This document shows positions 16,402-59,791 of a stretch of DNA of 64,000 nt, one piece after another. Position numbers and translations under genes: made by a program. The DNA comes from Tetracentron sinense (lineage: Eukaryota; Streptophyta; Magnoliopsida; Trochodendrales; Trochodendraceae). The DNA is taken from NCBI GenBank assembly GCA_015143295.1, contig CM026560.1:6946501-7010500 (forward strand), written 5' to 3'. A model generated the notes under the pieces. The model was not told the DNA's origin and ran no database searches. It was given only the letters and a program-made list of their open reading frames with translations. Numbering within the stretch: position 1 is the stretch's first letter; every line of letters starts with the position of its first letter.

Positions 16402-17630
16402 TGTAAATCCCTATATAGGTGTTGGCAAATTCCGTGATCATTAGATAGGTCATGTGAGTTGAGTCGTCGAGTCATGTTCAACTTGTCAGAAGAGAAGAGC
16501 TAAAGCTTAAAGAAGATTGAAGAAAGAGAAGAAAAAGCTCCTACTCTAGATCTAGACAGGTAATGGACTTAGAGACCCCTACCTAGGTTGGATTTGGCTT
16601 AGATAACTCTAAACATACCTAGGAGGATAGTTTTAAACCTAACAAAGTTGTTTGATCTCATTTGAATCAAATAACAATGAAATGAATCATGGTTTGAAAA
16701 CAATTCTGTCTCAACCAATCGCTCGGTATGAGACCGATCGATCGGTGGCCTACCGAGCGATCGGTGGCTATCGACTGGACAAAAAGTTTGTATGGGATAT
16801 TTTTCCAGAGAGATGATTTCTAACCGAGCGATCGGTCATTTGGACCGAGCGATCCGTTTTGGACCGAGCGATCAGTAGTGAGCACCGATCGATCGGTCCC
16901 CGTAAAAGGAATTTTTATTTTTCTGGATTCTTTTTTTAAACCCTATATAAACAACTTTTTGGAGACCTAATTCGTGTCTTTTGATATTTTTGAAAGAGTA
17001 GAGGTCTGAGAAACTCTTCTAGGGTTTTTCTTATTGCTTTTATTAGATCTTTGTTGATCTCTCCTCTTTCTTTGATCCTAGAGAATGCAAGTATAGATCT
17101 AAACCTTTGATCTTGCATTGTGTGATCTTAGATCTGTATGAGATCCCTCTAGGGTTTGAAACTTTCTAAATTGATTCACAACCCTACACCTTGTGTGTGT
17201 GTCCGGTGTTTGATCCGGAGCCTTCGTGGAAGGAGATCGATCGTGTGTGCTCGTGGTTTTGAAGTAGCTTGAGAAGATTTGGTCGGTATGGAACCGAAGC
17301 TGCTACGGCGGAGATCTAACTTGTTGGTTCGTGGAAATCAAGAGTAAGAGTCTATACCTAGGAACGTCGTTTCTGTTTTGGTAAGGTCTTGTCTTGTACT
17401 TGATATCTTTTCATAGTGAAGTTTATTGCTGGACAAGGTCTCGTGGTTTTTTCCCGTTAGGGTTTTCCACGTAAAAATCTTCTGTGTTTGATTTGTGTGG
17501 ATTGTCTGATTGAATTGTTCATTGATTTCTAAACATATTAATTGAAAAATTAAAATTGGTTAGAAATTATTAGATAGACCTATTCACCCCCCCTCTAGGT
17601 CTTAGAGATCATTGATCTGGATAAATTTCA
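16402..17630 (+). repeat. 5' LTR of the SIRE-like element
   Basis: It contains the palindrome module (16714-16897), a TATA box TATATAA at 16944-16950, and a transcribed leader. It ends in CA directly before the primer site. Confidence 0.95.
16714..16897 (+). promoter_or_regulatory. 3-core-4 palindrome module, SIRE 5' LTR
   Basis: Seven 14-bp units of type ACCGAGCGATCGGT or ACCGATCGATCGGT: three, then a core of about 45 bp (16768-16812, with CTATCGACTGG, TTTGTATGG and CCAGAGAG), then four. Two of the last four have one base changed. The module ends 46 bp before the TATA box. The same layout occurs in gypsy LTRs. Confidence 0.85.
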
Positions 17631-17631
17631 A

Positions 17632-17644
17632 TTGGTATTAGAGC
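17632..17644 (+). other. Primer binding site of the SIRE-like element
   Basis: TTGGTATTAGAGC starts within two bases of the LTR end and has one mismatch to the initiator tRNA-Met complement. Confidence 0.85.
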
Positions 17645-17697
17645 GAGTTCACTGATAAGGCTAATCCCTTAAGTGTGATCCTGTATTATCCGTAATC

Positions 17698-20600
17698 ATG
17701 AGTACTCTAAGAGAAGGAGGATCCGTCTCTCGTCCCCCACTTTTTGATGGGAATAATTATGCTTATTGGAAAGCTAGAATGAGAGCCTTTCTCAAATCTA
17801 TTGACGAGAGAATTTGGATGTCTATACAGAATGGGTGGACTATGCCCATAAAAATTGTAGGAGATTTGACTGTGGTCAAATATTCTGATGAATGGGCCAG
17901 AGAAGAGCTTGAGTCAAGTGGATGGAACACTAAAGGTCTCAATGCTATCTTTACTGCAGTCACTGCTGAGGAATTCAGACGAATTTCTTCATGTGAAACA
18001 GCAAAGGAGGCTTGAGACATTCTTGAAATTACCCATGAGGGTACTACCACTGTTAAAATCTCAAAACTCCAAATGTTAACCACCAAATTTGAACATTTAA
18101 ACATGGATGACAATGACACTTTTGATGAATTCTATGCAAAACTTAGTGCCATTGTCAACGCTAGTTTCAATTTAGGTGAGAAAATATCTAAGTCCAAAAT
18201 AGTTAGAAAAGTCTTTAGATCTCTCCCAGAGAGATTTCAACCCAAAGTCACTGCAATCGAAGAGAGTAAAAATGTTGACTCTCTGAAGATTGAGGAATTG
18301 GTTGGTTCACTCCAAACCTATGAACTCAATCTCCGTCCATCCAAGAAGAACAAATCTTTAGCCTTGAAATCCATCAAGGAATCTTTGGATGAGGATGATA
18401 GTGATGGAGATATGAATGAGGAAGAAATGGCTCTCTTCATTAAAAAATTTCGAAAATTTTTTAGAACGAAAAAGAGGTTTAATCCCAAACAGGGAGAAAA
18501 ATCTTTTGAAAAGTCAAAGTCTAAGCCCTGGGAAAACAAGAAAAATTCCAAGAGTGGCGACAAGAAATCCCAAGGTGTTCAATGTTATGAATGCCATGGC
18601 TTCGGTCATATTTCACCTAACTGTCCTAACAAGAAGAAGAGTAAGAGCAAGGTGATGAATGCCTGTTGGGATGACAGTGATTCCAAGAATGAAGAATCGG
18701 ACAGTTCCTCTTCAAGTGAAGATACTGGAAATCATACGGCTTTCACTGTTTCCCTTTCTGGGATTCTTGAGACTATCTCTGCAGTTGATGAAAATGATAG
18801 AAGTGATGAGAGTGTTCATACTGAGTCTAGTGATGACTTACAGAAGAGTCAAACTGACTCTGAAAGTGATGAAGATTTGAAAACAACTTATGATAAGTTG
18901 TTTGCTGAAAGTTTGAAACTGACTAAAACAAAAATCTCTTTGAGCAAAAAACTGAAACTCATTCAAAATGAAAGAGGTATTTGTAAACTAGTAGCAGAAG
19001 AGAAGAGTGCACTAGTTAGTCAGTTGGAAAATGAAAAAGAAGCATTTGTTTTGAAAGTTCAATGCCTTTTGGAAGAGAATTTCTCATTGACTAATGTGAT
19101 TAGAAAATTAAAAGTTGAAAGAGACACTTCCATGAAAGAAATTGAAGAGTTAAGAACTCTGCAAATGGAGTTGGAAACTTTTAAAGACGCTCTTGTTGAT
19201 AAGGTGAAATTTCTTGAAAAAGAACATCAAATTACCCTTAAAGACAAGACTGACTTGATTCAGAAGGTCTATACTCTTGAAAAGGAAGTAAGAATGTTTG
19301 GTAACACTAGCTGCCTAGATGAATTAGTTAGAAAATATGGATCAAATTCGAGTAGATCTGGGATAGGACATGCTGACACACCAGCTGGTCCTTTAGCTGT
19401 TGGTACAATGGCTAGGGCAGTGTTTGAGCCAATACATTCTGATCCTAAAGAGAATTTACCTTCTACATCAAGTACTAAGGCTTATACAAATTTTGTAAAG
19501 CCTAGAAATACAGCTCCTAGAGTGAATGCTTTGAGGAATCAAATTCCTGTTAGAAGAAATCCTCCTCCTCTTCTAAGATTCATACCCACATGTCACTTTT
19601 GTGGTGTGAGAGGTCACATTCGACCTTATTGTAATGCTTTTAGGAGAGCTCCCCGAAATGGTTCATGGAACCAAAATCAAAGTCAAGGGACTCTTCAAAG
19701 GCAGATTCAGGTTCTAGCTGAAAAGTCTAGAATGTTGAGCGATGATGTTAATAGAATTGCTCAAATCTCTAGGACAAGAACTGGTCAATTTATTCCAAAT
19801 GATTATTCAAAAGGAAACAATTTGACTTATCAAAAAGCTAGAACTGAACAAAACAGAAAAAGGTCAAGATGGACAAAAAGGAAAAAGGTCTCTACTACAC
19901 AGATTAATGATCAAAGATCTAGACAAAGTTTAAAGACTGTGTATGTAAGAAAGGATGACCTTAAGTGCTTTGTCATTCATACTGCCTTGAAAGCCCAAAA
20001 CACAGAAATGTGGTACTTCGATAGTGGGTGTTCTCGGCATATGACAGGTAACAAGTCCTTATTTATTCAATTTGAGGACTGTCCAGATGGGACTGTTACT
20101 TTTGGTGATGGAAGCAAGTCTTTAGTCAAAGGAAAGGGTATCATCGATTCACCAGGCATACCTAAATTGAAAGATGCTTTGTTTGTTGAAGGACTGAAAG
20201 CTAATTTAATTAGCATAAGTCAACTATGTGATGATAACCATGCTATGCACTTTACCCAAAATAAATGCTTAGTCATTAATGGTAAAGGTAAGTGTGTTCT
20301 AGAAGGATTGAGAACCACTGACAATTGCTACGGCTTAACTCCCAGTCCTAATCCCTCAAATGTCTGTTATAAGACTAAAATTGAGGAGGTTGATTTGTGG
20401 CACCGAAGACTAGGTCACATGAACTTCAAAGACCTATGTAAAATCTCTAAGCAAGAGCTTGTGAGAGGTGTTCCCAAACTAGGAAAGTCTTCTACTCCTG
20501 TGTGTGGGCCATGCCAAATTGGTAAACAAATTAGAACCCCACATAAGAAGACTTCAAGTATTGCTACTTCATATCCACTGGAATTAATTCATATGGATCT

Positions 20601-23013: not shown

Positions 23014-24435
23014 AGATGTACTTGTTTCATAGCCTATGTGTTCTTCATGTTCTATTTATGTCATAGAGCTATTTTTTTTGTTATTTTCTTTAAGTAATAA
23101 AAAATCCAAAAACATTCAAAAAATTGAAAAATATTGCAAAAAATAATGTGTTTGTATGACCTTCTTTCCAATCATTTTGCTTAAAGTTATTTCTTTGAAA
23201 TCATATTTGAACATATAATGCAAGGATAAATATTTCATAGGATTGGATAAATTAGGATAGGTCAAGTGTTGGTTTGATCTTGTGATTGAATTTGGTCATG
23301 CTAACTAATCTCAGTTAGAGTTGAGTAAACAAAGATGTTATCTAATGCACATGCACTCTAACTGATTCTTTAGATGGTATTAGTTCCTATTTAAAGGTTC
23401 TGATATTATACCATATGGTTCCCTAGATTAATCAAATCTAGTATAACCAATGACATAAAAAATTCAATAAAGTGAGCCCCCTAGTTATAAAAGTTATTGA
23501 CATGGAGATGACTACCTGTGAGTTTGTGTGATAGCTACTAGTAAATGCAAACAGTGAGTAATGGCTACCTAGACAAATAGTAGGTATCTATATGGATTGC
23601 TAGTGTGAAAGCCCCCACTGTCATTAGAAAGAGCTACCTTCTCACTTGTGTGAAAGTCACCAGTGTGCTAAAAACTATATATGTGTACTCCAAAAAGAAT
23701 TTTCACAATGAGTACAATTTGACTGAAAAAGAAATGAAATAAATCTGTTAGTCAAATTTGGGGTAAAAATTGCTCATCATATAAATATGGATGTTTATTG
23801 GTTTTAAAACTAGTTTTTGAAAATTTTAGAGTCCCATTTGAGCTATAATGTCAAAATCTAGATTAAGGAAGGAAACCAATTCAAAGAGTCAAGTAATGAA
23901 TTTTGATTTCATACTCACATTACTTCTACTTGTTTCTTGACTCTAATTGTGAATTTGATGCAAATACCATATTTAATCACCGGTGAAAATCAATTATTGA
24001 TTACATAATCCTTGTTTATGACTATACTTGATATATCAATTCTTGGGTGATTATTATTTATGATTTTAATGAAATTAATTGTTGCATATTTTTTTTGGTC
24101 AATTGGTCATTTTGAGGTAAACAATGAGTTTAAACCAAACCATAGGTTGAGGGGGAGATATGGTTATAAATGTAAAATTTTTGAAAATTTTTCAGACCAC
24201 CGATCGATCGGTCTTTCGTGAACAGAGTTATAAAACCCTCATTTCTATTTTTTTTTGTTCACTTGTTCTCCGATCTCCAGAGCGATCTCTCGGTTACCTC
24301 TCCTCCAAATCTTTCCTACGGTCATTCCATTCTATTCTAAAGGTTTCCCAAACATCTAAAAGGTAAGCTTTGTGCATTTTCTTGGATTTAGATTGATTTT
24401 CTCATCTAGGGCATCGTTTTCTTGCGTTTTCTTCC
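23014..24435 (+). other. Spacer between pol and the additional ORF
   Basis: A non-coding AT-rich stretch inside the SIRE-like element. It holds short imperfect tandem pieces (23500-23660: 'gctacct', 'agtgtgaaag', 'agctacta'), a purine tract TTGAGGGGGAGAT (24147-24159), and a promoter-like group at 24199-24237. Confidence 0.7.
24199..24237 (+). promoter_or_regulatory. Internal promoter-like site before the additional ORF
   Basis: One perfect LTR-type palindrome ACCGATCGATCGGT (24199-24212) is followed 16 bp later by a TATA-like GTTATAAAACC (about 24227-24237), 200 bp upstream of the additional ORF. A donor-like AAAAG|GTAAGC follows at 24361. This would allow a separate transcript for that ORF; inference only. 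Confidence 0.45.
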
Positions 24436-25728
24436 ATGGCTTTCGTTTTGTCGTTAATCCTTCTTGCCTATCTCATGTCTGGCGTTCCCAAACGTCGGAG
24501 GTTGGTCCTCAACAACCAAGAGGACCCTCCTCAAGATGAGGAAAACCAAGAGCCTTTTACTTTCACTCCAATAGGGCATGGTATTTCAATTGGGGACAGA
24601 CCAATTCGTCGACTGATAGATTCTACAATTGAGAATCGACAAAAATCTTTAGCTGATAAAACTCGGAAAAATAAAGGTAAAGCTTCATCTTCCCAGTCCA
24701 GTCAGTTATCCCAGTTTATAAGTCCTACTGCTGCTCAACTCTATAGTGAGTATTTTAGCAAGAAAGGTGTAATGGTTGAAAGGGACATACATATTTCCGA
24801 TTTTGGTGATTATTATCCTCCTACACTCATTTCAGATCCTAAATGGGAAGGTATACTTACCTTATCCGGTCCTGCTTCTGTCCAGTTAGTTAGGGAATTT
24901 TCCTCTAATTTTTCTGAAATCAACCAGAAAAAATGGTCATTCAAATCTCGAGCATTAGAACAATCTGTTGTCATAAATGCTGATTTGATTTCTAAATTCC
25001 TTGGCTGTCCTCGAGTTCCAAATGCATATTATCCTTATAATTATAAGAGTGATGAGGATAAAGACTCCATGGAACATGTTGTTACCTTTCTTAGTGGTAC
25101 TCCTACGTTTTGGGTTGGGTCTCTTATTGAAGTGGCGAAACTCACTAAGGATGCTCGACTAGTAAACCTAGTTATGAGTGCAAATATCCATCCAAAGGTT
25201 CATACTGCGAACCTTAGGGAAGATAGAGCTAGATTTCTGTTTAGTCTTCTACGTGGGCGTGATATTGATCTTGCCGCTCACATCATTGACTTGATGATCC
25301 AAGCCCATCAAACTAGTACAGCAGTTGGAGCCCTACCATTTGGTTCACTCATCACTAAACTTCTTGGTTCTCAAGGAGTTATCGCTCCTCCTGGTGTTCC
25401 TACTCGAGTTCCTAAGGGTCCAATCAACAAAAAGACCCTAGCTCAGAGTTTTTCACATGCCTCAGTTCGAGATACAGAGGAGGGAGCAGAAGTTAGTGCT
25501 GGGTCATCTCGTCCTCCTCCGACCACTATGGATGATCTTGGGAGGATGATGCGAGAGATGCAGATGGATCTCCAGACTCATGTTTCATCATACGAGGAGT
25601 TTACTACAGAGGTTCCTGGTAGACTTGGATCTCTCGATGCAGTCGTGCTAGGAGTACAGAGAGATGTTCGGGATTTTCGAGCTTACTATGAGTCCCAGCT
25701 CACTTCTGATAATGAACAGGAGGGATAG
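24436..25728 (+). CDS. Additional ORF of the SIRE-like element, intact
   Basis: 430 codons without any interruption, on the sense strand between pol and the 3' LTR, where SIRE-lineage elements carry their extra (sometimes called envelope-like) ORF. The first 14 residues are hydrophobic (MAFVLSLILLAYLM); a second Met at 24475 begins MSGVPKRRRL, a basic, nuclear-localisation-like start. Residues about 125-330 resemble the 'putative plant transposon protein' domain of such ORFs, with a FLGCPRVP segment, a NIHP..HTANL segment and an ALPFGSLITKL segment. The C-terminal 65 residues look like a coiled coil. Function is unknown, and no envelope features such as a clear transmembrane anchor are seen. 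That it is intact while gag-pol has four stops is notable. Confidence 0.8.
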   Translation: MAFVLSLILLAYLMSGVPKRRRLVLNNQEDPPQDEENQEPFTFTPIGHGISIGDRPIRRLIDSTIENRQKSLADKTRKNKGKASSSQSSQLSQFISPTAAQLYSEYFSKKGVMVERDIHISDFGDYYPPTLISDPKWEGILTLSGPASVQLVREFSSNFSEINQKKWSFKSRALEQSVVINADLISKFLGCPRVPNAYYPYNYKSDEDKDSMEHVVTFLSGTPTFWVGSLIEVAKLTKDARLVNLVMSANIHPKVHTANLREDRARFLFSLLRGRDIDLAAHIIDLMIQAHQTSTAVGALPFGSLITKLLGSQGVIAPPGVPTRVPKGPINKKTLAQSFSHASVRDTEEGAEVSAGSSRPPPTTMDDLGRMMREMQMDLQTHVSSYEEFTTEVPGRLGSLDAVVLGVQRDVRDFRAYYESQLTSDNEQEG

Positions 25729-26043
25729 TTCGTGATTGGATTTTATCTTAGTTGAGTGATAGTTTTTGTTTGACATTTTGATGTATTTTGTCTTGGTTGT
25801 ACTTAGTACAAACCTACTTGGATATTATTGACTTGTTATGGATGTATACATTTGAATGGTTTATGCTCATTATCTTTTATCTCATCTCATTTGGATGGTT
25901 ATGCATTAATTTTCTAGTCCACCTTTGGCATTTCGAGCCAAAAAGGGGGAGAGTTATGATTAATGTGTATTGTGTTAATGTGTTGGATGAGGTTATAAAT
26001 GTTTTGGATGATGTTATGGAATGCTTAACCTGTTATGGATATA

Positions 26044-26321
26044 ATATTGTGGAATTGTGGATGTTATGTAATACATATTTTCATTCTTCCAATATTTTAT
26101 CCCATATTTTATTTCTCATGCTTCACAGGTTTTTGATTTAGCATGTGCAGGCAAACAGGTTCTAAGTTTGGTGAATCATGACATATTGTGGAATTGTGGA
26201 TGTTATGTAATACATATTTTCATTCTTCCAATATTTTATCCCATATTTTATTTCCCATGCTTCACAGGTTTTTGATTTAGCATGTGCAGGCAAACAGGTT
26301 CTAAGTTTGGTGAATCATGAC
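26044..26321 (+). repeat. Two-copy 139-bp tandem duplication
   Basis: Copies 26044-26182 and 26183-26321 differ at one seen position (ttctcatgc versus ttcccatgc). Confidence 0.95.
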
Positions 26322-26449
26322 AAGCTAACATGCCAAAAGTCCTGTAATTATATTTTTGAGTCATGTAAAGGTCAATTTTCCATTTTTGAATCAATTGGGA
26401 AAATTTGAACCTAGTATATGAGTTAGTCTTGTTTTGTCTCGGAATTGCC

Positions 26450-26461
26450 AAAGGGGGAGAT
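26450..26461 (+). other. Polypurine tract of the SIRE-like element
   Basis: AAAGGGGGAGAT lies directly before the 3' LTR start TGTAAATCCC, the expected plus-strand primer site. Confidence 0.9.
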
Positions 26462-27691
26462 TGTAAATCCCTATATAGGTGTTGGCAAATTCCGTGATCA
26501 TTAGATAGGTCATGTGAATCGAGTCGTCGAGTCATGTTCAACTTGTCAGAAGAGAAGAGCTAAAGCTTAAAGAAGATTGAAGAAAGAGAAGAAAAAGCTC
26601 CTACTCTGGATCTAGACAGGTAATGGACTTAGAGACCCCTACCTAGGTTGGATTTGGCTTAGATAACTCTAAACATACCTAGGAGGATAGTTTTAAACCT
26701 AACAAAGTTGTTTGATCTCATTTGAATCAAATAACAATGAAATGAATCATGGTTTGAAAACAATTTTGTCTCAACCGATCGCTCGGTATTGAGACCGATC
26801 GATCGGTGGCCTACCGAGCGATCGGTGGCTATCGACTGGACAAAAAGTTTGTATGGGGTATTTTTCCAGAGAGATGATTTCTAACCGAGCGATCGGTCAT
26901 TTGGACCGAGCGATCCGTTTTGGACCGAGCGATCGGTAGTGAGCACCGATCGATCGGTCCCCGTAAAAGGAATTTTTATTTTTCTGGATTCTTTTTTTAA
27001 ACCCTATATAAACAACTTTTTGGAGACCTAATTCGTGTCTTTTGATATTTTTGAAAGAGTAGAGGTCTGAGAAACTCTTCTAGGGTTTTTCTTATTGCTT
27101 TTATTAGATCTTTGTTGATCCCTCCTCTTTCTTTGATCCTAGAGAATGCAAGTATAGATCTAAACCTTTGATCTTGCATTGTGTGATCTCAGATCTGTAT
27201 GAGATCCCTCTAGGGTTTGAAACTTTCTAAATTGATTCACAACCCTACACCTTGTGTGTGTGTCCGGTGTTTGATCCGGAGCATTCGTGGAAGGAGATCG
27301 ATCGTGTGTGATCGTGGTTTTGAAGTAGCTTGAGAAGATTTGGTCGGTGTGGAACCGAAGCTGCTACGGTGGAGATCGAACCTGCTGGTTCGTGGAAATC
27401 AAGAGTAAGAGTCTATACCTAGGAACGTCGTTTCTGTTTTGGTAAGGTCTTGTCTTGTACTTGATATCTTTTCATAGTGAAGTTTATTGCTGGACAAGGT
27501 CTCGTGGTTTTTTCCCGTTAGGGTTTTCCACGTAAAAATCTTCTGTGTTTAATTTGTGTGGATTGTCTGATTGAATTGTTCATTGATTTCTAAACATATT
27601 AATTGAAAAATTAAAATTGGTTAGAAATTATTAGATAGACCTATTCACCCCCCCTCTAGGTCTTAGAGATCATTGATCTGGATAAATTTCA
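26462..27691 (+). repeat. 3' LTR of the SIRE-like element
   Basis: Partner of 16402-17630. One base longer (gtattgagacc against gtatgagacc), otherwise about 17 substitutions by eye. TATA at about 27004-27011. Confidence 0.95.
26774..26958 (+). promoter_or_regulatory. 3-core-4 palindrome module, SIRE 3' LTR
   Basis: Same seven-unit layout as in the 5' LTR. The first and sixth units are perfect here (ACCGATCGCTCGGT, ACCGAGCGATCGGT) where the 5' copy has changes, so this copy is closer to the original. Confidence 0.85.
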
Positions 27692-28545: not shown

Positions 28546-28571
28546 GTTTTTCTTGTCGTACTGATCATCCC

Positions 28572-29857: not shown

Positions 29858-29994
29858 TGCTCGGCCAACCGGTGGTGCCCATCGGTTGACCGGTTCAAAA
29901 TAAGCTCTCTGTACAAAAATACCATACAAAATTTGGCAGGTTCGGTCGAACAGTAGTGAGGTTCGGTCGACCGAATTTGTGTTCGGTAGACAGG
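29858..29994 (-). promoter_or_regulatory. Palindrome module, GTCGAC variant
   Basis: On the minus strand: units such as TTCGGTCGACCGAA, then a core with TTTTGTATGG and CAGAGAG as in the ACCGATCGATCGGT modules, then ACCGGTCAACCGAT and related units. The core is conserved while the palindrome centre has changed to GTCGAC. TATA lies about 75 bp downstream on this strand. Confidence 0.65.
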
Positions 29995-31032: not shown

Positions 31033-31216
31033 ACCGATCGCTCGGTCATTACCTGCGATCGATCGGTCCACTACCGATCGCTCGATAGCTGTCGCACGGT
31101 TAACTTTTTTGTATGGGGAAAAATTCCAGAGAGCGTGTTTTTGACCGATCTCTCGGTCATAACACCGATCGACCGGAAGCCACCGATCGCTCGGTCCATA
31201 CCACCGATCGATCGGT
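31033..31216 (+). promoter_or_regulatory. 3-core-4 palindrome module, Gypsy-1 5' LTR
   Basis: Seven units, mainly ACCGATCGCTCGGT (reverse complement of the SIRE unit) and ACCGATCGATCGGT, arranged three, core (with TTTTGTATGG and CCAGAGAG), four. Length 184 bp, the same as in the SIRE 5' LTR. The last unit ends 56 bp before the TATA box. Confidence 0.85.
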
Positions 31217-37300: not shown

Positions 37301-37725
37301 TCCGAGTTTGAGATCGGGTCTTTGTGAAGATTTCGCCGAGTCGGGGAATCATGCGATTCGGGAATAAGGGAAAGCTCAGTCCTAGGTACGTGGGACCATT
37401 TGAGATCGTCACAAGGGTTGGTGAGGTTGCTTACAGGGTAGTACTACCGCCTCACATGGCAGCGGTCCATAATGTATTTCACGTCTCTATGCTTAGAAAA
37501 TACATTTCGGATCCGTCTCACGTCATCGCTCTTAATCCTGTTGAGATTCGAGAGGATCTTACGTTGGTTGAGCAACCAGTCCAGATTCTGGATCGTCGAG
37601 ATCAAGTGTTGCGAACCAAGACTATCCCTTTAGTCCTAGTGAAGTGGCAGCATCATTCCAAGGAAGAGGCTACATGGGAGCGAGAAGCGGAAGTGAAGGA
37701 AAAGTACCCTCACTTGTTTGAGTAG
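34394..37725 (+). pseudogene. Gypsy-1 pol (PR-RT-RH-INT-chromodomain), broken
   Basis: Protease DTGSTHSF at about 34435; reverse transcriptase 34980-35540 with FVDD at 35389-35400; RNase H 35840-36170 ([10 protein letters not shown]); integrase with an HHCC zinc finger (36480-36610), MDF (about 36687), SDRDPRF (about 36869) and TERVN (about 36978); then the GPF/Y segment (RYVGPFEI, about 37385) and a chromodomain (about 37580-37722, LVKWQHHSKEEATWE). Damage: a one-base frameshift near 35805, a second near 35935, and a TGA at 37309 in place of a Gly codon. The chromodomain suggests targeting to heterochromatin, as known for chromoviruses. Confidence 0.9.
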
Positions 37726-37817: not shown

Positions 37818-39691
37818 TGTAGAGCCCCGAAATTTCATTTCACTAAGAATGAATAGTGTGTGAATAGTGCCCAAGTGTGATTCTGCACACTTATGAGTCT
37901 TGTGTTAATATACAAGTTTGGATTTATGGTGTGCATGTTCTAATGGGTCTATATGTCCTTAAGGAGTGTGTTAAAAGCATAAAAGAGTATTGAAATTGGA
38001 TTGGAGAGGATTCGAGTGGCGTAAACAAGGTTTTTCAGCAAAACAGGGGTCAACCGATCGCTCGGTCATTACCTGTGATCGATCGGTCCACTACCGATCG
38101 CTCGATAGTTGTCGCACGGTTAACTTTTTTGTATGGGGAAAAATTCCAGAGAGCGTGTTTTTGACCGATCTCTCGGTCATAACACCGATCGACTGGAAGC
38201 CACCGATCGCTCGGTCCATACCACCGATCGATCGGTCATACGCAGTTTTTCTTCATTAAGGGTGTTTAAGACTTTAACCATCACCCTTTGCCTATAAAAG
38301 GGCTGGGTTCGTGCCTTAGGGTTTCACAAACCCTTTGTGCATTGTTTTTGAGGGATTTGAAGAAGAGAAGGAGGAGAGGACTTGGTGATCGTTCAAGCTT
38401 GAGGAAGATCAAGTTCTTCCTTTCCATTTGGTGTTTTCCAACCAAGAACTCACTGTTCTTGCTTGTTCCAGCCATTGGGAGTCAAACTCATTGATTTCTC
38501 CAAGGTAGATACACTCTACTACAATCTTGCAACCCTACTAGTTACTAATTATGATTCTTCTTATCTATGCCCTATTTATATGTATTGATTTTATGTATGA
38601 AAATGTGTGATTATATACTTGGATGAAGGTTACTATTATGATGCACTCTAAGTGTTTGATAAAATACCTCTAAGGGATTCTATGCTTAAATATGATGATT
38701 TCTCTTATTAAGTGCATATGCTCGCATGTCTCGCATGAACCGATGGTTTCCATGGATTTCTTAAAGGGCAAACAAAGGTTTTTCACGAGAAGATGAATAA
38801 TGAATGATTCTAAGTAACTCTATGATTTCTCTAAGATCGTTTCACAAGCTCTAAGGATCATACCATGCTCACAAGGAAACTCTATGATAATGCTCTAAGA
38901 TCATCTCACAAGCTCCACGGATCACAATGAAATGCTCTAAGATCTCTAAGGTTATGCTCTATGGAAATGCTCTAAGGTTATTGCTCCATGCTCTATGTCT
39001 CTACGGATCATAATGACTCTAAGTAACTCCATGAACTCACAAGAACTCATAAGGCTATGATTATCGATTGACTCACACGGTTACAGTTTTGGTTTCGAAT
39101 ATTATCTCACATACGTTTTCACGGTTTCCATGCTTTAAGGAATTTACGGATTTCATTCTCCATGTCTTGTATGCTCCATGCCTAACCGCTTTATTGTTAT
39201 TAGTTTGTATACACTGAGTATTCCATGCTCAGTCGATATTGTTATGATTGGCAGGTGCTCGGGTTCCATTCGATTTGTGTGGCGAAGAACCTTGGGTCGA
39301 GGAAGAGTACCGTGACCCGGAGCCTTCCATGGATCACTATCATGACGATGGTGCTTTAGATAGGAGTCGTGACTTCGATTTCTGTTAATCGACCGACTTA
39401 GAACTTGTGTCTTTTGTTATGTGAGTGTGGGGTTTGTCCACTCCACTTATGGGTTTCTCACACATGTATACTTGTTGGCTCTTACTTGAGCCAAGTTATA
39501 GGAGTATTCATTTTGCTTCCGCTATGTTTAGTATTTTGTTTTCCACTGTGCATTGTATTTCATTTCCGCTATGTATATTTAGGTACTCTGACAAGTTTCC
39601 ACGTGTGCCTTATGTATCATACAGGAGGTATGATACGGCGGTCACGAGTCAAAGTATCCTTAACTCCTAGGGGGTATTTTGGGTCGCGACA
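37818..39691 (+). repeat. 3' LTR of Gypsy-1
   Basis: 1874 bp, equal in length to the 5' LTR. The palindrome module is at 38053-38236, TATA at 38293-38300, and the acidic frame at 39255-39388 (its stop is TAA here, TGA in the 5' copy). Ends CGCGACA and abuts a broken Copia-C LTR. Confidence 0.95.
38053..38236 (+). promoter_or_regulatory. 3-core-4 palindrome module, Gypsy-1 3' LTR
   Basis: Same seven units as 31033-31216, with three or four substitutions (for example CGACCGGA to CGACTGGA). Confidence 0.85.
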
Positions 39692-42495: not shown

Positions 42496-42679
42496 ACCGA
42501 TCACTCGGTCCATAGAGCGATCGATCGGTCCAAAACCGATCGATCGGTAGCTATCGACTGGTCAAGATTTTTGTATGGAGAAATTTTCTAGAGAGTTGAT
42601 TTTTGGTCGAGAGCTCGGTCAACACACCGATCGCTCGGTAGGCAACCGATCAATCGGTCATTAACACCGATCGCTCGGT
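42496..42679 (+). promoter_or_regulatory. 3-core-4 palindrome module, solo LTR
   Basis: Seven units (for example ACCGATCACTCGGT, ACCGATCGATCGGT, ACCGATCGCTCGGT) in the arrangement three, core (CTATCGACTGG, TTTGTATGG, AGAGAG), four; total 184 bp. The downstream TATA is degenerate (ccttaagag, about 42742). Confidence 0.85.
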
Positions 42680-48871: not shown

Positions 48872-48873
48872 CT

Positions 48874-50236: not shown

Positions 50237-51626
50237 GTTTTCCTTGTGAGCCAGGTATGACATATCCTAGGGATATGCCCTATCCTTGACCGGCCCGATG
50301 TCCGGCTTTATCATTCGTATCGTGAATCACAATTTTTGTTCTTGTTTGATTTATCATATACATATACTTTAGAAAACTAGTCCATGCATGCATGCGTGTG
50401 TGTGTGTAGCATTTGTAGTAATCGTGGTGACTTGTATAACTCAAGGGAAGGTATGTAGCATTTCAATTTCTAATAGAAGCATGAGGGAATGTAGATAACA
50501 TGTAGAGAATTGGATCAAGATAATCATTTAAGAAGAATCACTCAATTCATGCTTTCATAATTTTCATTAATTCATTCAAATTGTCATTTAAGCATTTTAT
50601 CAAATACTTGGTATGCAACATTTTCATAGGTCATGTATTTAAGTTGTTAGGTGTATACATTTCATCAAAACATCAAGGTGTATTCATTATTTGTAGAATG
50701 TCCTTCCACCATTCTCTATTACACACAATATATCGCATTCATACGGCATCCAATCGCCTCACCCTTCATCCATTCATACATCTCACAACCTTTATCTTCT
50801 CGTTCATTTTGGGAAAATTAGGGCATTTCAATAAAAGGGAAAATAGGGGAGATCAACACACCACATTTAAGAGAAAAACTAGGTTAATACTAAGGTAGTT
50901 AGTAGGGTGTACTAACCTTGAATAGGGGAAGAAAAACCTTGAAAATGGTGAGAAGGATCGCTGTCCATGCTTGGAGAAGAACTCCACACGTGCTTGAGGG
51001 TGGATTTGAGAAATCTAAGCTCCAATGGGTCCTCCAACAACTCTTGCAACAAACCCTAGCTTCTTCCCCCTCTTCCTTCTCTCAAAATCCCCAAAATATA
51101 TGCTTGAGGGTGTATGAAACCCCAAACCCACAAATTGGGGCTTTTATAGAAAATGGGGTGGTCAAAGACCTATTTACCCTTAATGAAATCTGCAAAACGC
51201 GAAAGACGGATCGATGACCAAGCGATCAGTGTTTTTGACCGAGCGATCGCTTGCCTACCGAGCGATCGCTTGAAAATACCCTCTCTAGAATTTTTCCCCA
51301 TACAAATTTTTGGACCAGTCGATAGATACCGTTCGCTCGGTTTTGGATCGAGCGATCGCTACTTTGGACCAAGCGATTGGTGCTCTGCAAATTTTGACAC
51401 TTGATCTATTTTGCTGTTTTTCCTTATTTTGGTATTTCAGCCATAACTTTTGACTCGTTCGCCGGATTTTGACGATTCAACTTGCGTTAGATTCATCATT
51501 CGAAGGGGAACATTTCTGACATTTTAGAATCTTCAAATTTTTTATATTTATTAATCGGACTATGTGAAAGGTCAATTGGCTATGAGAACATTGTTCATTA
51601 GGTACGAAAAGGTCTGGGGCGCTACA
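50237..51626 (-). mobile_element. Reverse gypsy LTR fragment
   Basis: On the minus strand it starts TGTAGCGCCCCAG at 51626, then the shared block (51430-51510), palindrome module (51203-51381), TATAAAAG (51141-51148), donor-like AAG|GTTAGTACACC (about 50918) and AT-rich intron-like DNA. It breaks off at 50237 near the minisatellite edge, so the 3' third of the LTR is missing. Confidence 0.8.
51203..51381 (-). promoter_or_regulatory. 3-core-4 palindrome module, reverse LTR
   Basis: On the minus strand three units, a core (CTATCGACTGG, TTTGTATGG, AGAGAG), then four units. The units are more diverged (ACCAAGCGATTGGT, ATCGAGCGATCGCT, ACCGAGCGATCGCT as read on plus). It lies 55 bp from the TATA box. 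Confidence 0.8.
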
Positions 51627-52927: not shown

Positions 52928-53745
52928 TTATTTATTTCACTGGTCTTGTTTAGCTAGTACTCGAACTATGGAATGGACATATATAGTAGGATATTGTCAT
53001 TCTTGCTTGTCTTGTTTGACTAGTACCCGAACTATGAAATGGACGGACATACTAGGTTCTTGTCATTCTTACTTGACTAATGCCCAGACTATAATGGAAC
53101 GAAACACATTAGCCTCATGTCTTGTTTAACTAGTACCCGAACTATGACTTGGACAATCATACTAGTTTCTTGTTTTGCTTGACTAATACCCAGACTATAA
53201 TGGAACGGAACACATTAGCCTCATGTCTTGACTTGACTAGTGCTCAGACTATAGTGGAATAGAACACACTAGCATTTCACTTGCTTACTAATGCCCAGAC
53301 TATGATTGAACATGAACATTAGTATCCTTACCTTGACTTGACTAGTGCCCGGACTATGGTGGAACGGAACACACTAGCATTTCACTTGCTTACTAATGCC
53401 CGGACTATGATTGAACGGAACATAATAGTATCTTTGCCTTGACTTGACTAGTGCCTGGACTATGGTAGAACATAACACACTAGCATTTCACTTGCTTACT
53501 AATGCCCGGACTATGATTGAACGAAACACATTAGTATTCTTGCCTTGACTTGACTAGTGCCCGGACTATGGTGGAATGGAACACACTAGCATTTCACTTG
53601 CTTACTAATGCCCGGACTATGATTGAACGGAACACATTAGTATCCTTGTCTTGACTTGACTAGTGCCCAGACTATGGTGGAACGGAACACACTAACATCC
53701 TTGTACTTGCTTTACTAATTACCGAACTTTAATGGGACGAAACAC
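52928..53745 (-). repeat. Minisatellite, about 55/110-bp unit
   Basis: About thirteen half-units of 'actagtgcccggactatggtggaacggaacacactagca', alternating with 'ttactaatgcccggactatgattgaacgg'. The alternation gives a higher-order unit of about 110 bp. Longest array in the window. Confidence 0.9.
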
Positions 53746-54248
53746 ATTAGCAAATTAACTTGCTTGTTCTTGTTGTTTCTTGTATGCATATATTTGAAAT
53801 CTTGGTTAATGCATGCAAACATGTGGTGTGTGACAATGTGTGAGCATAATAATGACATGAAAAGGATTGTGAATATCATATAGCATTTCCACTTTCTATT
53901 GATAGTCATGTATGAATGTGAGCAATATAGAGAGCATTAGATCAATTTTACCCGTTGCATTAGATCAATTTTACCCTTTAGAGGACAACCCCAAAAATCA
54001 TGCATGTTATAGGTGTCGCGACCCAAAATACCACCTAAGAGTTAGGGATACTTTAGTCCGTGACCGCCGTGTCAAACCATCCTGTATGACACATAAGGCA
54101 TACTTAACATCCTGTACAATATATAAAACATACTATAGCAGAAGCAGAATACAAAATTTTCTACACATACTATATCCAAGTTTATACAATAACCCAAAAT
54201 AAAGAGCGAACACGCTCGCTCATCAAAATATATGTATCAGTCTCTCCT

Positions 54249-54386
54249 TATCTCACTCTGTATGGGGCCACCACCTATCGAGTATCCTCTGATACTCCTG
54301 AAGCTCCTTTGGAGTAGGTACCTCCTCAACATATTCCTCCTCAACCCAAGGCTCCTGAGAATGCTCGTCACAAATGTCGAGAGGAC
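54249..54386 (-). other. Acidic LTR reading frame, reverse LTR
   Basis: Minus strand, after GGCAG: EPWVEEEYVEEVPTPKEL and a terminal LDRWW. It is nearly the same as 2866-2999 but with Trp in PWVEEEY. Confidence 0.45.
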
Positions 54387-55907
54387 CTGCCGACATAATA
54401 TATACGGCTGAGTATTGAATACTCCGCGTATACAAACCACTAGATAGTAATGTCATAAACATGAATACAGTATATATATCGCAGTTGAAATCATTTCACA
54501 TGCATTATTTAATCAGAGCGCGGAAAACATAATGTAAAAACAATCATGTGCATATATCTCAGAAAAACATCTTCTTTTGCTTTACCATCTTTACTTTACG
54601 TTCATTTACATCTTTGCATTACGGGTATTGTAAAATACCTTAGTTTCATTACTTTCCATCTACAAATATTTAAAATACCCTGTATCCACCTAAGGAGTCG
54701 GGCAAATAGTACCCATGTACCCACATAAACTGGGCAGGCCTACTGTTATCCTCACCTTTGGCTACCTTCGGAGTAGACGACCAGTATCCATGATCCTTCC
54801 AGGTGGCCTGCTATTCGCCAAAGTTCGACGACCAGTATCCCTTTCCCTTCCAGGCAGCCTGCTATCATACCTCCCCGATCGGTATTATTTGATTGATTAG
54901 TACCCATGTACCCACAGGAGATGGGCAAGCCTTCTATCAACCTGAGATAGATGACTACAATCATCCTGTACCATTACTTCCTCATATACTTTCCATTACT
55001 TTTCCTTTTACTTGCCATTACTTTCCCTTTACATCTTATACTTTACTTTTGCCTTTACTTCTTTGGATAACCATAATTGATAAAATCTCGATCATGCAAA
55101 CAAATGTGCTTGTGTAGCAATTGTGAATAACATGGTAGACAAAAAGGAAAACTCTACATATCACCAATATTTCACATTTTCATTTATAGTAATAGCCAAG
55201 GTATAAGTAAAGTCATACACATCCAAGCACAAGTAGAACATATGGTTTTCTCATTGGTATTCCCTAAAACGTAAGGTTTTTAATCATGCTTTTCATCTTT
55301 GAATTCTAACATCAAGATCAGATAATAAAATAGGAATTGCTACACTTCTTATTCATTGGTTGAAAGCATAAAAGCATCACAATTTGCTACTAGGGTTCCC
55401 TATTAGTTCACAATGCAATACAATTGATTTTATCTTGAATTACCAAATGGTTTATGGAATTCAAATCTAGTAGCTTGCTCTACATATTAAAATTCATATT
55501 AAACAACCTAGTAGCTTGTTCTACTAGTTCATAACAACAAACAAATGGAATTGATCTAGATTTACAACATATGGTTTATGAAATTAACATCTAGTAGAGT
55601 GTATCTACCTTTATAGATCAATCCCTTGATCTAATTCGCTTGAGGATGCGCCGAGGAAGACACCTTGAAAGAGAAATGATCTTCTCTTTTGGTTCACAAC
55701 CCTAACCAACACCCAAGCTAAGAGCAATCCAAGAAGAACCAGCCTTCTCCTTTTCTTCCTCTTTCAAAACCTCTTTCAAACTCTCTCTAGGGTTGTAGAA
55801 ACCCTAAAACCCACGAAAATGGTGCTTATATAGGCCAAGGGGGTTGCCCAAAGACCCCCATATCCTTAAAAATATCCTGGAAGTCGGCTACTACCCAAAA
55901 ACCCAGC

Positions 55908-55944
55908 TGAACGGTCGACCGGTCAGAAGTTCGGTCGACCGGTT
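55908..55944 (-). promoter_or_regulatory. Reduced GTCGAC palindrome pair
   Basis: Two copies of ACGGTCGACCGGT / TTCGGTCGACCGG lie about 80 bp from the TATA box in the usual slot; the TTTGTATGG core is absent. Confidence 0.5.
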
Positions 55945-57459
55945 TGGTCACCTTGTCTCCCGTTTTTTCTGCTTCAGTGTTTTGACCATAACTTTTTACT
56001 CATTTATCTGATTTTGACGATTAAACTTTTGTTAGATTCTTATTTCAAAGGGAAACAACTTTCATGTTTTATACAACTCTTAATTTTGAGATTTTCATAG
56101 TCTAAATGGGCCCACAAGTGGACTGGTCCAAAATGACTGTTGAATTGACAGCAGACCCTTGAAGAGGGTTTGAATATCCTTCTAATTGCTCAAGAATTAC
56201 TCGATTCCAATAAGAGGTGACCAAACTAGAGCTTCCACAAGTTGAGGGAATGTCAAGACATCCCTCTTTGACACTTAGAACCTTTAGAGTGCTATCACAC
56301 TCACTCACCTTTGGTTCAACACCCTACTCACACCTCATTACCCATTCCCCCATAGCTTTTTAACCCACCTAGGTAATCATTGAACACACACCCACATGCA
56401 TGAAAGGCCTTGACCTTTTTATGCCTCGTGCACTAGCACTATTCACTGTACTATTTACTAAGACCCTTTTAAGCACTTAGGACATTTTATACCCATGCTT
56501 TTCCCCCTTTAGAGCATCTTTGTTCTCTAGCTTGAGATCCAACACACGCACATAAAACTCTCACTTGACTCACCATAAAACCAAGAACACACTAGAAGGC
56601 CTTAGGCCATTACACGCACTGTCTAAGAGCACTATTCACATGAACAGTGAACCGAATTTCGGGGCTCTACATCCTTCCCCCCTTATGAGAAGTTCGTCTT
56701 CAAAATTAGAACGATACGCACTCAAGCGATGATACTTTTCCCTCAATTCATTATACATGACTAAGTCAAGCAATGCATAGCAGCACCCATATTCTATAAG
56801 GTTTAACATCCAAAAAGTGACTGTCATGGGACGATCAATCATCCAAATCCCTGAGGTTGTCTGAATTTTTGCAGTTTGGTATTTCGACCATAACTTTTGA
56901 CTCGTTCATTGGATTTTGACGATTCAACTTATGTTGGACTCATCTTTGAAAGGGGAACAACTTTCATGTTTTACATAACTCCTAATTCTTTTTTATTCAT
57001 GATCCAAAGTTGCCATAAAAGTTACTGTCAGAAAATTTAGCAAAAAAATGATGGAAAACTCACATTTGACTTATCTTAGACTCAAAATATGGAAAAATGT
57101 TAAGCACGAACCTCGAAGAGGATTCCAATATGGTTCTAATGGTTTAAACATCACTCAATTCCGATAAGAGGTGAGAAAACTAAACTTCTCTCAAGTTAAT
57201 GTTTTGTAGAGACTTCCCTCTTTTAAACCTCTAGAACCTTTTCCACCTTTTGTTTTCGACACCCATAACCTAGGAAACATTCCTAAGGCCATTATACACA
57301 TTAAAATACATTGTTCATGCAAATTTTGAAAACCCCATCTCCCATTTTCGTTAAGAATCTTTCAAGACCTACCTTAGGCATCAAGCCGTAGATACTTTTC
57401 ATTGCACTATTCACTACCCTATTCACATGAACAGTGATCGTGAGATCTGTGGTTCTATA

Positions 57460-59113
57460 GGATTTTAGGCCCGGTAGGCCAAAAACTGAAAGTAACCGCA
57501 GTTAGGGTTGCTAACCAGGGGTTAAGGGTGGTCTAACCTTGGTTAGGGTTGCTAACCAGAGTTTTTTAAATGGGCCAAAGTCAGTTTTATGGTCCAAGAA
57601 GTCTTTTTTGTGAATTTTCCAGATTTTGTGGGGTTAAAGGGTGCTTAACCATGGTTAAATGTTAATCAATTGTGAATTTAACCATGGTTAAGGGTCAAGT
57701 TAAGTCCAAATTGGGCCCAGGGGGCTAGGTAGGGCCTAGAGTGGCCTCCTACTAGGCCTGGGCCCTGTGCAAATAGCCCAAAGTTAAAAAAGTTTAATGG
57801 CGGTAATAGGATTACCGCCATTAATACTGTAATTTTAATCCTGGTTTGCACACTGATAACACGGGTTAGGGACTAACCTAGGGTGCTCTCAAAGCATGGG
57901 TTTGAAGAGGGGACCCCCGAGAAAAGAGTGAGCCTGGGGTGGGCCCAAGGGGTGGCCTAGAGTGGGCCCCACAAAGTGCCAAAGGTGATGTATGTAAAAC
58001 CATAGAGTGGCGATACATAATCTACCGCCATTGCCAAAACAGGTAAGAAATGAATTGCGGTAGATGGTTTACCGCCATTAAGCACAGTGTTGGTTTTTCG
58101 AATAACCATGGTTAGTGTTAACCCATGATCTTGGGAGGACCAGGTTAGTCTCAGGAGAGGCAAATGGGTTCAACGCAGGCCTTGGACATGGACCAGGACC
58201 CACCAAAATAGGCTAACCAAGGTTAAAACAGTGAAGGCAAAGAATGGCAGTACTGAGTTTACCGCCATTCCTGGTTTTTTTTAAAAACCAGAAATGTGCC
58301 CATGGGGGCTGTGCTCAGGGGTAACTAGGGGTTCCCTCATGAATTGAGGGACCCCCAGTAGGTTCTGAGATTGGTCTTAAAGCTCAGGGCATCGCTTGTA
58401 CCCGTAGGGGTTCACCACGCCCATGATCAAGGTGGGTGAACACCCCTGCATTAGGTTTTAGTACTAACAAACAGTAAGAAATAAGAAAAGTTCCCTAGAA
58501 ATAACCAGGGGCTCACATGGAATTCAACAAGAGAAAAAGGAAAGGGGAAAGGGGCAAGGCCCTACCCTGCTCTGTTTCTTGCCGAGGGAGGTACTGTGAA
58601 CTGTGGCGGCGCACCTTGTGATGGTGCTGCAGGGCTCAAGCAGGGGAGAGCTGGGCTTTCCTTGGGCGCTAGGTAAAGCTTATGGAAGCTTGGAATGGAG
58701 TTTCGGATGAGTTGGTTATCCAACAGGGTTCAAACTGGAAATTTTTGGATCCCTTCTACGGTTGAGGAGGCTACTACTTATAGAGGGAGGTCCTTGGGAC
58801 TTAAGGGGGATTAAGGGGAAGAGGAAGATAGTGGTTGGACCCTTTGGAGGTCGAGTGAGGGAGCTGATGGGAGGGTGGATTGGATGGTGGAGTGTGCAGG
58901 GGGGCTGTAGACTGCGAACTGGGAATTTAAACAATGGCGGTAGATGGTCTACTGCCATTGTTAAACCAGGCAACAAGCTAATTGGCGGTAGACCATCTAC
59001 CGCCAATAAGAAATTTTTTGATTTTTGGGCCTGGCCCAAGCACGATGACTATGGGGGGTTTGGCTTTAGGGTTTTTGGGCTTTATGGGCCCAAGTCGAGG
59101 TTCAGGCCCTAGA
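57460..59113 (+). mobile_element. LTR-type repeat family A, right part
   Basis: Continuation of 51627-52255 after the nested LTR. It holds many copies of 'gctaacc.gggtta' style phrases and six short inverted repeats built on ATGGCGGTA..TACCGCCAT (57796, 58007, 58053, 58242, 58931, 58979). The open frames here (for example 58762-59112) follow from GC-rich repeats and show no domain. Confidence 0.5.
57796..59008 (+). repeat. Array of six dispersed hairpins (GGCGGTA type)
   Basis: Inverted repeats at 57796-57822, 58007-58032, 58053-58080, 58242-58270, 58931-58962 and 58979-59008. Each is 9-12 bp arms (AATGGCGGTA and complement) around 5-8 bp. Confidence 0.8.
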
Positions 59114-59605
59114 TGTAGAGACCCGAATCTTTTTCATGTTTTTATTTCATTGTGTTAAGGGTATTTTAGCCCTTGTGATGTTTGATATTTATTGTTTTTT
59201 TTATGCCTAATTATTGTGGTGTAAACTAGGCTTAATCAACTTGTAACGGATGGATGTCATGGCACATCCTAAACTTTAGGAAGCTCTAGTTTTAGAACCG
59301 TTTACCGGAATTGTGTGATTCTTGAACCATTAGAAAGGTGTTGGAATCCTCTTCGAGATTCATGTTTAGTGTTTTTCCTCATTTTGAGTTTAAGTCAAGT
59401 CAATAGTGAGTTTTGTCTAATGGAATTGCAGATCAGTCAATTTTGGGGATATTTTAGTCTATAAATTAAGTGGAAATTAGAAATTCTAAAATGCCAGAAA
59501 TGTTCGTTTTCGAAAGACGAATCCAACCCAAGTTGAATCGTCAAAATCCGACGAACGAGTCAAAAGTTATGGCCAAAACAGTAAAGGGAGTCAAAACCTG
59601 CAGGA

Positions 59606-59791
59606 ACCGATCGCTCGGTCAGAACCAGCGATCGATCGGTCCAAAACCGATCGATCGGTATCTATCGACTGGTCCAAAATTTTGTATGGGAAAATTTTCC
59701 AGAGAGTGTGTTTTTGACCGATCGCCCGGTCATAAACACCGATCGATCGGTAGGCAACCGATCGCTCGGTCATTACCACCGATCGCTCGGT
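59606..59791 (+). promoter_or_regulatory. 3-core-4 palindrome module, Gypsy-2 LTR
   Basis: Best preserved copy: ACCGATCGCTCGGT, AGCGATCGATCGGT, ACCGATCGATCGGT, core (59661-59706), then ACCGATCGCCCGGT, ACCGATCGATCGGT and two ACCGATCGCTCGGT. TATAAATA follows at 59866-59873. The core is close to that of the SIRE LTR. Confidence 0.9.

What the first reader, a model, noticed from the sequence alone, without database searches (positions are those of the whole stretch)
16714..59791. Same palindrome promoter module in copia and gypsy LTRs
LTRs of two unrelated superfamilies, the SIRE-like copia (16714, 26774) and several gypsy LTRs (31033, 38053, 42496, 51203 reversed, 59606), contain a module with the same layout: three 14-bp near-palindromes, a core of about 45 bp with CTATCGACTGG, TTTGTATGG and CCAGAGAG, then four near-palindromes. 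Length is 184-186 bp in six copies and about 179 in the reversed one. It ends 46-75 bp before a TATA box in each LTR where TATA is clear. The copia core resembles that of Gypsy-2 too closely for chance. Because Ty1/copia and Ty3/gypsy LTRs are not otherwise homologous, the module seems to have moved between them as a unit, perhaps as a promoter or enhancer cassette.
Basis: partly seen in the sequence, partly recalled or inferred. Interest (0 to 1): 0.92.

Follow-up and report, generated by a model that had tools for sequence, protein, structure and literature searches.

The report
Promoter module shared across retrotransposon superfamilies
In one plant genome, two very different kinds of retrotransposon carry the same array of DNA palindromes around a conserved core just upstream of their promoters, in two matching versions, which suggests that control modules pass between mobile elements that are otherwise unrelated.

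Summary
The module is real: six copies of 184-186 bp (seven boxes, 57-bp core) and one of 165 bp. Copia-gypsy similarity stops at its edges. The core alone is 34-45/57 identical in the ten copia-gypsy pairs, while spacer sequence is random and only spacer length is kept. It is not a one-off: the core pattern has 15,344 exact matches in the 1.16-Gb genome (reversed control 0).

The copia element is a Sirevirus. Palindromic "RM boxes" before the TATA box are already described for Sireviruses and called Sirevirus-specific (Bousios 2010); here most sampled copies lie in Ty3/gypsy LTRs.

New here: two module types occur in both superfamilies. Type A uses ACCGATCGATCGGT, type B ACCGGTCGACCGGT-like words with the upstream boxes shifted about 10 bp. 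The left half of the core groups by type (copia A versus gypsy A 13.9/21; versus copia B 7.7/21), although the LTR backbones group by superfamily.

Best reading: a U3 enhancer array for a dimeric DNA-binding factor, exchanged between superfamilies. The factor, enhancer activity and direction of exchange are untested. Type B rests on few loci (three copia, three gypsy). Other species could not be searched.

The parts
16402..17630 (+). 5' LTR of Sirevirus-type copia element (TSD GATCA at 16397-16401 and 27692-27696)
16714..16897 (+). module copy, type A, 7 boxes + 57-bp core (copia 5' LTR)
24150..24157 (+). linker polypurine tract AGGGGGAG before the extra ORF
24199..24212 (+). single perfect box ACCGATCGATCGGT upstream of the extra ORF; TATAAAA at 24229-24235; a weak second box (2 mismatches) at 24281
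24397..25728 (+). extra open frame after pol (443 aa stop to stop), Pfam PF20167 'putative plant transposon protein'; in the place of the Sirevirus ENV-like gene
26452..26463 (+). Sirevirus polypurine tract and attachment site AGGGGGAG-AT/TG; 3' LTR begins at 26462
26462..27691 (+). 3' LTR of the Sirevirus-type copia element
26774..26958 (+). module copy, type A (copia 3' LTR)
29862..29993 (-). type B module in a reversed gypsy LTR: five CGGTCGACCG-like boxes (0-2 mismatches) at -65, -45, -24, +36, +57 around core TTTGTATGGTATTTTTGTACAGAGAG
31033..31216 (+). module copy, type A, 5' LTR of chromodomain gypsy element (LTR from 30798)
37312..37725 (+). C-terminal pol piece of that gypsy element with chromodomain (PF00385, E 3e-07)
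38053..38236 (+). module copy, type A, 3' LTR of the same gypsy element (LTR from 37818)
42496..42679 (+). module copy, type A, gypsy LTR beginning at 42284
51217..51381 (-). module copy, type A, six boxes (165 bp), reversed gypsy LTR beginning at 51626
55912..55941 (-). two CGGTCGACCG boxes, 20-bp pitch, at the homologous place of another reversed gypsy LTR; the TTTGTATGG core was not seen there
1265..1306 (+). two TTCGTCGACGAA-type palindromes (one with a mismatch), 30 bp apart, at the homologous place of a further gypsy LTR; no core seen
59606..59791 (+). module copy, type A, 5' LTR of a gypsy element (LTR start taken as 59114); the same module, 100% identical, lies 7,442 bp downstream beyond the window

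Best explanation
It is a promoter-proximal regulatory module in the U3 part of the LTRs: an array of 14-bp palindromic boxes at about two-helical-turn pitch (18-21 bp) on both sides of a conserved core (TTTGTATGG-N7-TYYHAGAGAG), ending 46-68 bp before the TATA box where one is seen. The boxes are of the RM kind known from Sirevirus copia elements. The most likely mechanism is that a dimeric DNA-binding protein of the host occupies the boxes, side by side on one face of the helix, next to a second factor on the core, and drives or tunes transcription. The module exists in two versions (A and B: different box word, upstream boxes shifted by about one helical turn, different left core), and both versions occur in Sirevirus copia LTRs and in Ty3/gypsy LTRs, so the module as a whole has passed between the superfamilies, most likely by template switching between RNAs packaged or reverse-transcribed together, or by gene conversion. 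Shown: anatomy, module-only similarity, genome-wide multiplicity, both types in both superfamilies. Inferred: binding by a dimer, enhancer role, route and direction of exchange.
For: Core, boxes and box spacing conserved, spacer sequence random between copia and gypsy: copia3 versus gypsy 59k boxes 88/98, core 43/57, spacers 7/31 against a shuffled mean of 7.6. No copia-gypsy LTR match below E 0.08 outside the module. The 31k and 59.6k gypsy elements: reverse transcriptase third codon positions 44.6% identical over 271 codons, module 83.5%, so the module changes far more slowly than near-neutral sites. Core pattern 15,344 exact genome matches, reversed control 0. At least 40 copia-type module matches at 96-100% (40 scored of 2424 candidates) and 40 gypsy-59k-type at 99-100% (40 of 1402), both lower bounds. 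In the first 33 core matches of contig C1: 26 gypsy type A, 2 copia A, 2 copia B, 2 gypsy B, 1 unclassified B. Type A boxes at -75/-74, -54, -35 and type B at -85, -64, -45, -25/-24, with downstream boxes at +36, +57, +76, +97. Copia B L034 and gypsy B L047 match only from -21 to +109, in the same register, whereas copia B L034 and L040 align with the window copia along about 695 bp of LTR. Left core: copia A versus gypsy A mean 13.9/21 (n=18), versus copia B 7.7/21 (n=3). One box also stands 16 bp before an internal TATA in the copia element.
Against: No binding, expression or reporter data. The module tree and core tree (window copies only) do not nest copia inside gypsy, so direction is open; the core tree has weak supports (72, 44). 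The right half of the core does not separate the types (copia A versus gypsy A 13.8/20, versus copia B 13.7/20). Type B is few: three copia loci (L034, L038, L040), three gypsy (window 29.9k, L047, L061; L061's flank match is only 56 bp), one unclassified (L036). Box number is not fixed: 2+4 and 5+3 in the two random-sample copies. The 18-21 bp pitch fits two helical turns only roughly.
Confidence: 0.62

Rival explanations
1. Parallel evolution: RM-type arrays and core were shared long ago, and each superfamily then changed box word and register on its own because both depend on the same host factor as its specificity shifted. No later exchange is needed.
For: Both types occur in both superfamilies. 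Types A and B differ by a symmetric pair of transitions (ACCGRTCGAYCGGT) and a shift of about one helical turn, which a change in one protein could select. L047 has mixed words, an intermediate state. Spacers between copia A and gypsy A are random, so any exchange is old.
Against: CTATCGACTGG at -19 is 11/11 in 8 of 8 copia A modules (one family) and at least 9/11 in 14 of 18 gypsy A, but at best 6-8/11 and at other offsets in type B; the left core of copia A resembles gypsy A, not copia B. Sharing of that stretch is hard to explain without common descent of type A.
Confidence: 0.2
2. The array is kept because its RNA folds into hairpins that feed, or escape, small-RNA silencing; conservation reflects structure in the transcript rather than protein binding to DNA.
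For: Both copies folded are far more stable than shuffles (z -7.0 and -5.9). In maize Sireviruses palindrome-rich LTR regions are small-RNA hotspots (passages in PMC10760457 and PMC5311732; the original 2016 paper is not held).
Against: Palindromes give stable folds whatever their role. Asymmetric boxes stand mostly in one direction within a module (T/G versus G/T 16:1 in four gypsy copies), which leaves mismatches in box-to-box pairing; copia has 1:4. Helix-turn register is meaningful for DNA, not for an RNA hairpin.
Confidence: 0.1
3. The boxes are bound by a protein that an element itself encodes (as VANC proteins of VANDAL transposons bind their own motifs; recalled), for instance by the extra copia ORF, and gypsy elements hijack it.
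For: The extra ORF (PF20167) has a perfect box just before its own TATA.
Against: I found no extra ORF of 150 aa or more beside gag and pol in the gypsy element at 30.8-39.7k. PF20167 is not described as DNA-binding; a protein search found no relatives (7996 candidates, none scored). No structure was predicted.
Confidence: 0.05
4. Chance likeness or a single nested insertion of a gypsy LTR piece into one copia element.
For: Similarity does stop at the module edges.
Against: Core shuffles never reach the observed score; the module lies in both LTRs and in six further Sirevirus LTRs on six contigs; no target-site duplication was looked for or noticed at its edges.
Confidence: 0.01

Closest known systems
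Sirevirus repeated motif (RM) boxes, Bousios et al. 2010, PMC2829016 (abstract, passages and parts 2-3 of the main section read)
   Same: Palindromic boxes in many copies in the first half of the LTR, upstream of the TATA box, CpG-rich, family-specific word, extra boxes upstream of the ENV-like gene. The Vitis Sirevirus word CGGTCGACCG is the type B word here.
   Different: The paper calls the RM Sirevirus-specific among the copia elements it compared and names no gypsy carrier in what I read. Type A word has CCG...CGG order, not CGG...CCG. The composite with a fixed core, two registers and presence in gypsy LTRs is not in the parts read.
[quoted passage not shown] 2016; seen only as cited in PMC10760457 and PMC5311732)
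   Same: U3 palindrome arrays, hairpin-forming, proposed cis-regulatory role.
   Different: Maize Sireviruses only; different word. PMC10760457 reports the same maize palindrome also in elements annotated as Helitrons, a possible case of sharing between TE orders.
Tnt1 BII-type repeated boxes and other U3 enhancer repeats (recalled; named in passing in PMC2829016)
   Same: Repeated short dyad boxes upstream of TATA acting as transcription activators.
   Different: Not tested here for sequence likeness; no cross-superfamily sharing known to me.
Template-switch recombination between LTR retrotransposons (for example PMC1950507, search listing only)
   Same: A route by which an LTR segment can move between elements.
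   Different: Known cases that I recall are within a superfamily; here the exchanged piece is shared by Ty1/copia and Ty3/gypsy.

Membership tests
Sirevirus (copia element 16402-27691) | PPT AGGGGGAG exactly 10 bp before the 3' LTR, followed by AT/TG | tested here: met
   AGGGGGAGATTG at 26452, LTR at 26462
Sirevirus (copia element 16402-27691) | several identical PPTs in the linker | tested here: met
   24150, 25944, 26452
Sirevirus (copia element 16402-27691) | 5' LTR junction CA/ATTGG and PBS TATCAGAGC | tested here: met
   CA-ATTGG-TATTAGAGC at 17629-17644, one mismatch in the PBS
Sirevirus (copia element 16402-27691) | ENV-like gene after pol (many members) | tested here: inconclusive
   443-aa frame with PF20167, not shown to be an envelope
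Sirevirus RM boxes | palindromic, repeated, upstream of TATA in U3, CpG-rich | tested here: met
   CpG o/e 1.58-1.78 in four modules, 0.61-0.66 in the rest of those LTRs, 0.57 in the window; positions
Sirevirus RM boxes | at least eight copies per element counting linker copies | tested here: met
   seven in each LTR plus one perfect and one weak box before the extra ORF
Sirevirus RM boxes | CGG-CCG core signature | tested here: not met
   type A word ACCGATCGATCGGT has CCG...CGG (met by type B, CGGTCGACCG; the paper's Tnd-1 is also an exception)
Sirevirus RM boxes | restricted to Sireviruses | tested here: not met
   type A and B arrays in gypsy LTRs
Ty3/gypsy chromovirus (element 30798-39690) | RT before integrase, chromodomain at the end of pol | tested here: met
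   RVT_1 34381-35850, rve 35914-37311, Chromo PF00385 37312-37725
Ty3/gypsy chromovirus (other module-bearing LTRs) | chromodomain | not tested
   59.6k element shares 71% RT and 56% gag identity with the chromodomain element but is cut by the window end; 42k, 51k and most sampled loci are LTRs only
Tekay/Del lineage | placement in an RT tree | not tested
   lineage name is recalled; no tree was made
LTR enhancer | raises transcription in a reporter | not testable with these tools
   no functional data

The most novel reading that the evidence does not exclude
LTR promoters of this genome are built from a small set of interchangeable modules ('alleles' A and B) that move as units between Ty1/copia and Ty3/gypsy elements and each match one state of a host DNA-binding factor, so that unrelated retrotransposons share and track one transcriptional niche, in thousands of copies.
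Probability: 0.5. Interest if true: 0.82.

Novelty: new variant of a known kind. Interest (0 to 1): 0.7.

Why it matters
LTRs of copia and gypsy elements are thought to share only their general plan. If whole promoter modules pass between them, control sequences and coding sequences of retrotransposons have separate histories, elements of different superfamilies can come under the same host control together, and one factor could govern thousands of LTRs (15,344 core matches here). The two versions in both superfamilies make it testable whether modules were exchanged or changed in parallel, and the box words give a direct handle for finding the binding protein.

Tried and rejected
Species and relatives: pattern scans of viral contigs and a scan for relatives of the gypsy RT found nothing; the protein search with the extra ORF scored 7996 candidates and kept none; no plant collection other than this genome was at hand, and the species is not known to me. 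Rfam: no family in the window. Literature for the letters: searches gave only unrelated hits (7 papers; 20 listed of 37). Literature for RM-type arrays in gypsy LTRs: (listings; passages read in six papers other than PMC2829016) gave no report of them; only open-licence papers are held, and searches listed 15 of 39 and 12 of 57.

Rejected: single nested insertion; chance; fixed 3+4 layout. Not decided: direction. Trees of window copies put copia apart from gypsy and do not show which gave to which.

Weak points of the sampling: L029-L048 (20 loci) were picked from the 100 listed core matches for unusual middles; with L053-L072 (20 loci) they make the first 33 matches of C1 complete, and that set is the one counted; all carry the pattern's exact letters, so conservation inside the pattern is by choice. 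One search used 8 copia A (seven nearly alike), 18 gypsy A, 3 copia B and 2 gypsy B modules, before L053-L072 were fetched. The 200-kb sample (20 evenly placed stretches on six contigs) held two module copies, both gypsy. A palindrome-cluster scan of it gave 8 clusters against 0 in five Markov controls, but by eye four of the eight (L010, L014, L016, L024) do not look like LTR box arrays. Pattern CGACCG-N12-36-core has 444 matches, control 0, but some are type A copies in which CGACCG arises from a spacer, so it does not count type B.


Full report
The finding says that LTRs of a copia element and several gypsy elements share a palindrome module. I checked it in the window, then in the genome. 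Positions below are window coordinates, or bases from the first T of TTTGTATGG.

Observation. Six copies are 184-186 bp with seven 14-bp boxes and a core of exactly 57 bp; the reversed copy at 51217-51381 has six boxes in 165 bp and also a 57-bp core. Box pitch is 18-21 bp, and 71 bp across the core. In the six seven-box copies 243 of 294 box pairs are complementary. Of 72 half-sites in the window 64 lie in the modules. CpG is 1.58-1.78 of expectation in four modules and 0.61-0.66 in the rest of their LTRs.

Not only palindromes. With boxes removed, the core is 34-45 of 57 identical in the ten copia-gypsy pairs and no shuffle of 2000 reaches this. Spacers between copia3 and three gypsy copies are at the shuffled level (7/31, 7/30, 10/31), though their lengths are kept within one or two bases; between gypsy copies the spacers are more alike (22/31, 23/31, 17/30). 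Two whole-LTR comparisons agree: outside the module no copia-gypsy match is better than E 0.08. Among gypsy elements the 31k and 59.6k copies are 83.5% identical in the module, while third codon positions of their reverse transcriptases are 44.6% identical over 271 codons. At looser scoring the 31k module match extends a little into the flanks (221 bp, 79.6%), and for the 51k LTR about 140 bp downstream, so gypsy LTRs do share some backbone.

The elements. The copia element has the Sirevirus PPT and attachment site, three linker PPTs, the Sirevirus PBS junction with one mismatch, TSD GATCA, and LTRs that differ at 17 aligned sites of about 1,229. It carries one perfect box 16 bp before an internal TATAAAA ahead of an extra ORF with PF20167. 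The gypsy element at 30.8-39.7k has RT, integrase and a chromodomain; its LTRs differ at 20 sites of about 1,873.

What was known. Bousios et al. 2010 (PMC2829016; abstract, passages, parts 2-3 of the main section; [quoted passage not shown] Vitis has CGGTCGACCG. The copia half of this finding is therefore a new member of a known kind. I found no report of such arrays in gypsy LTRs and the passages read, within an open-licence library.

Genome. After seven unanswered tries, the own-genome search worked. The copia module has 40 scored full-length matches at 96-100% (2424 candidates), two of them the window's own, and the gypsy 59k module 40 at 99-100% (1402 candidates), including the window's own copy and a mate 7,442 bp downstream; all are lower bounds. 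Six other copia matches read in full lie in Sirevirus LTRs at 96-98.5% (one over 580 bp only). The core pattern has 7,619 + 7,725 exact matches and none when reversed. In 200 kb taken at even places, two modules were found, both gypsy, with 2+4 and 5+3 boxes, so box number varies.

Two module types in both superfamilies. Around 40 fetched core matches, and in the window, boxes fall into two sets. Type A: word ACCGATCGATCGGT, boxes at -75/-74, -54, -35 and +36, +57, +76, +97 (some 1-2 bases off), usually CTATCGACTGG at -19. Type B: ACCGGTCGACCGGT-like, boxes at about -85, -64, -45, -25, same downstream register in the fuller copies. Upstream boxes thus differ by about 10 bp, one helical turn. 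In the first 33 matches of contig C1, complete and unselected, I count 26 gypsy A, 2 copia A (L056, L063), 2 copia B (L034, L038), 2 gypsy B (L047, L061), 1 unclassified B (L036). Several copies are irregular (for example L071 at -42 and -21; L038 downstream at +51 and +71). L040 is a further copia B locus with the Sirevirus PPT/attachment site next to its LTR; L034 and L038 were classed as Sirevirus by 73-74% matches of the LTR's 3' part to the window copia, L038 only in the longer stretch (its 800-bp flanks had no match). The window's own 29.9k gypsy LTR is type B (-65, -45, -24, +36, +57).

Backbone and module disagree. Copia B L034 and L040 align with the window's copia A along about 695 bp (61%), so they are one LTR lineage; yet L034 matches gypsy B L047 only in the module (-21 to +109, 71%, same register). 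The left half of the core, which the pattern does not fix, is 13.9/21 alike between copia A and gypsy A and 7.7/21 between copia A and copia B. The right half does not separate them (13.8 and 13.7 of 20). Word, register and left core therefore go with module type, backbone with superfamily. I read this as exchange of the module between superfamilies, perhaps twice. Parallel change under a shared factor explains words and register but not the shared CTATCGACTGG. L047, a gypsy LTR with mixed words, looks intermediate, which would fit an origin of type A in gypsy; this is a hint only, and the trees of window copies do not settle direction.

Mechanism. Conserved boxes, core and spacing with free spacers, helical register and closeness to TATA point to proteins bound to DNA. 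Boxes are pairs of half-sites ACCGAKCG; asymmetric ones mostly face one way within a module (16:1 in four gypsy copies, 1:4 in copia). RNA folds are stable (z -7.0, -5.9) but any palindrome array folds. The factor is unknown; I name none. All functional steps are inference.

Noticed in passing
16397-16401 and 27692-27696: The Sirevirus is nested in an older copia element: TSD GATCA, with copia pol pieces on both sides (14774-15769, 27919-28545).
   Followed up: partly
26044-26322: Two nearly identical (99%) 139-bp tandem copies in the Sirevirus linker shortly before the 3' LTR.
   Followed up: no
53008-53752: Array of a 106-bp tandem repeat, about six copies.
   Followed up: no
1778-3238 and 54014-55473: Inverted pair of about 1.46 kb, 89% alike, both near module-less gypsy LTR pieces.
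   Followed up: no
7275-8415: Two open pieces of a 2-oxoglutarate dioxygenase gene (DIOX_N and 2OG-FeII_Oxy), the only host-like gene seen among frames of 150 aa or more.
   Followed up: no
L027 2325-2500; L026 3950-4075: Other palindrome clusters with other words (TCGCTCGAGCGA; ACGATCGATCGT, GCGATCGATCAC) in the random sample; no TTTGTATGG core or LTR context shown.
   Followed up: partly
L063: A copia LTR (94.8% flank match) whose core middle is gypsy-like (GGAAAAT instead of GGTATTT), a possible recombinant core.
   Followed up: no
1265-1306: TTCGTCGACGAA palindromes at the module's place in a related gypsy LTR, a third word without the core.
   Followed up: no
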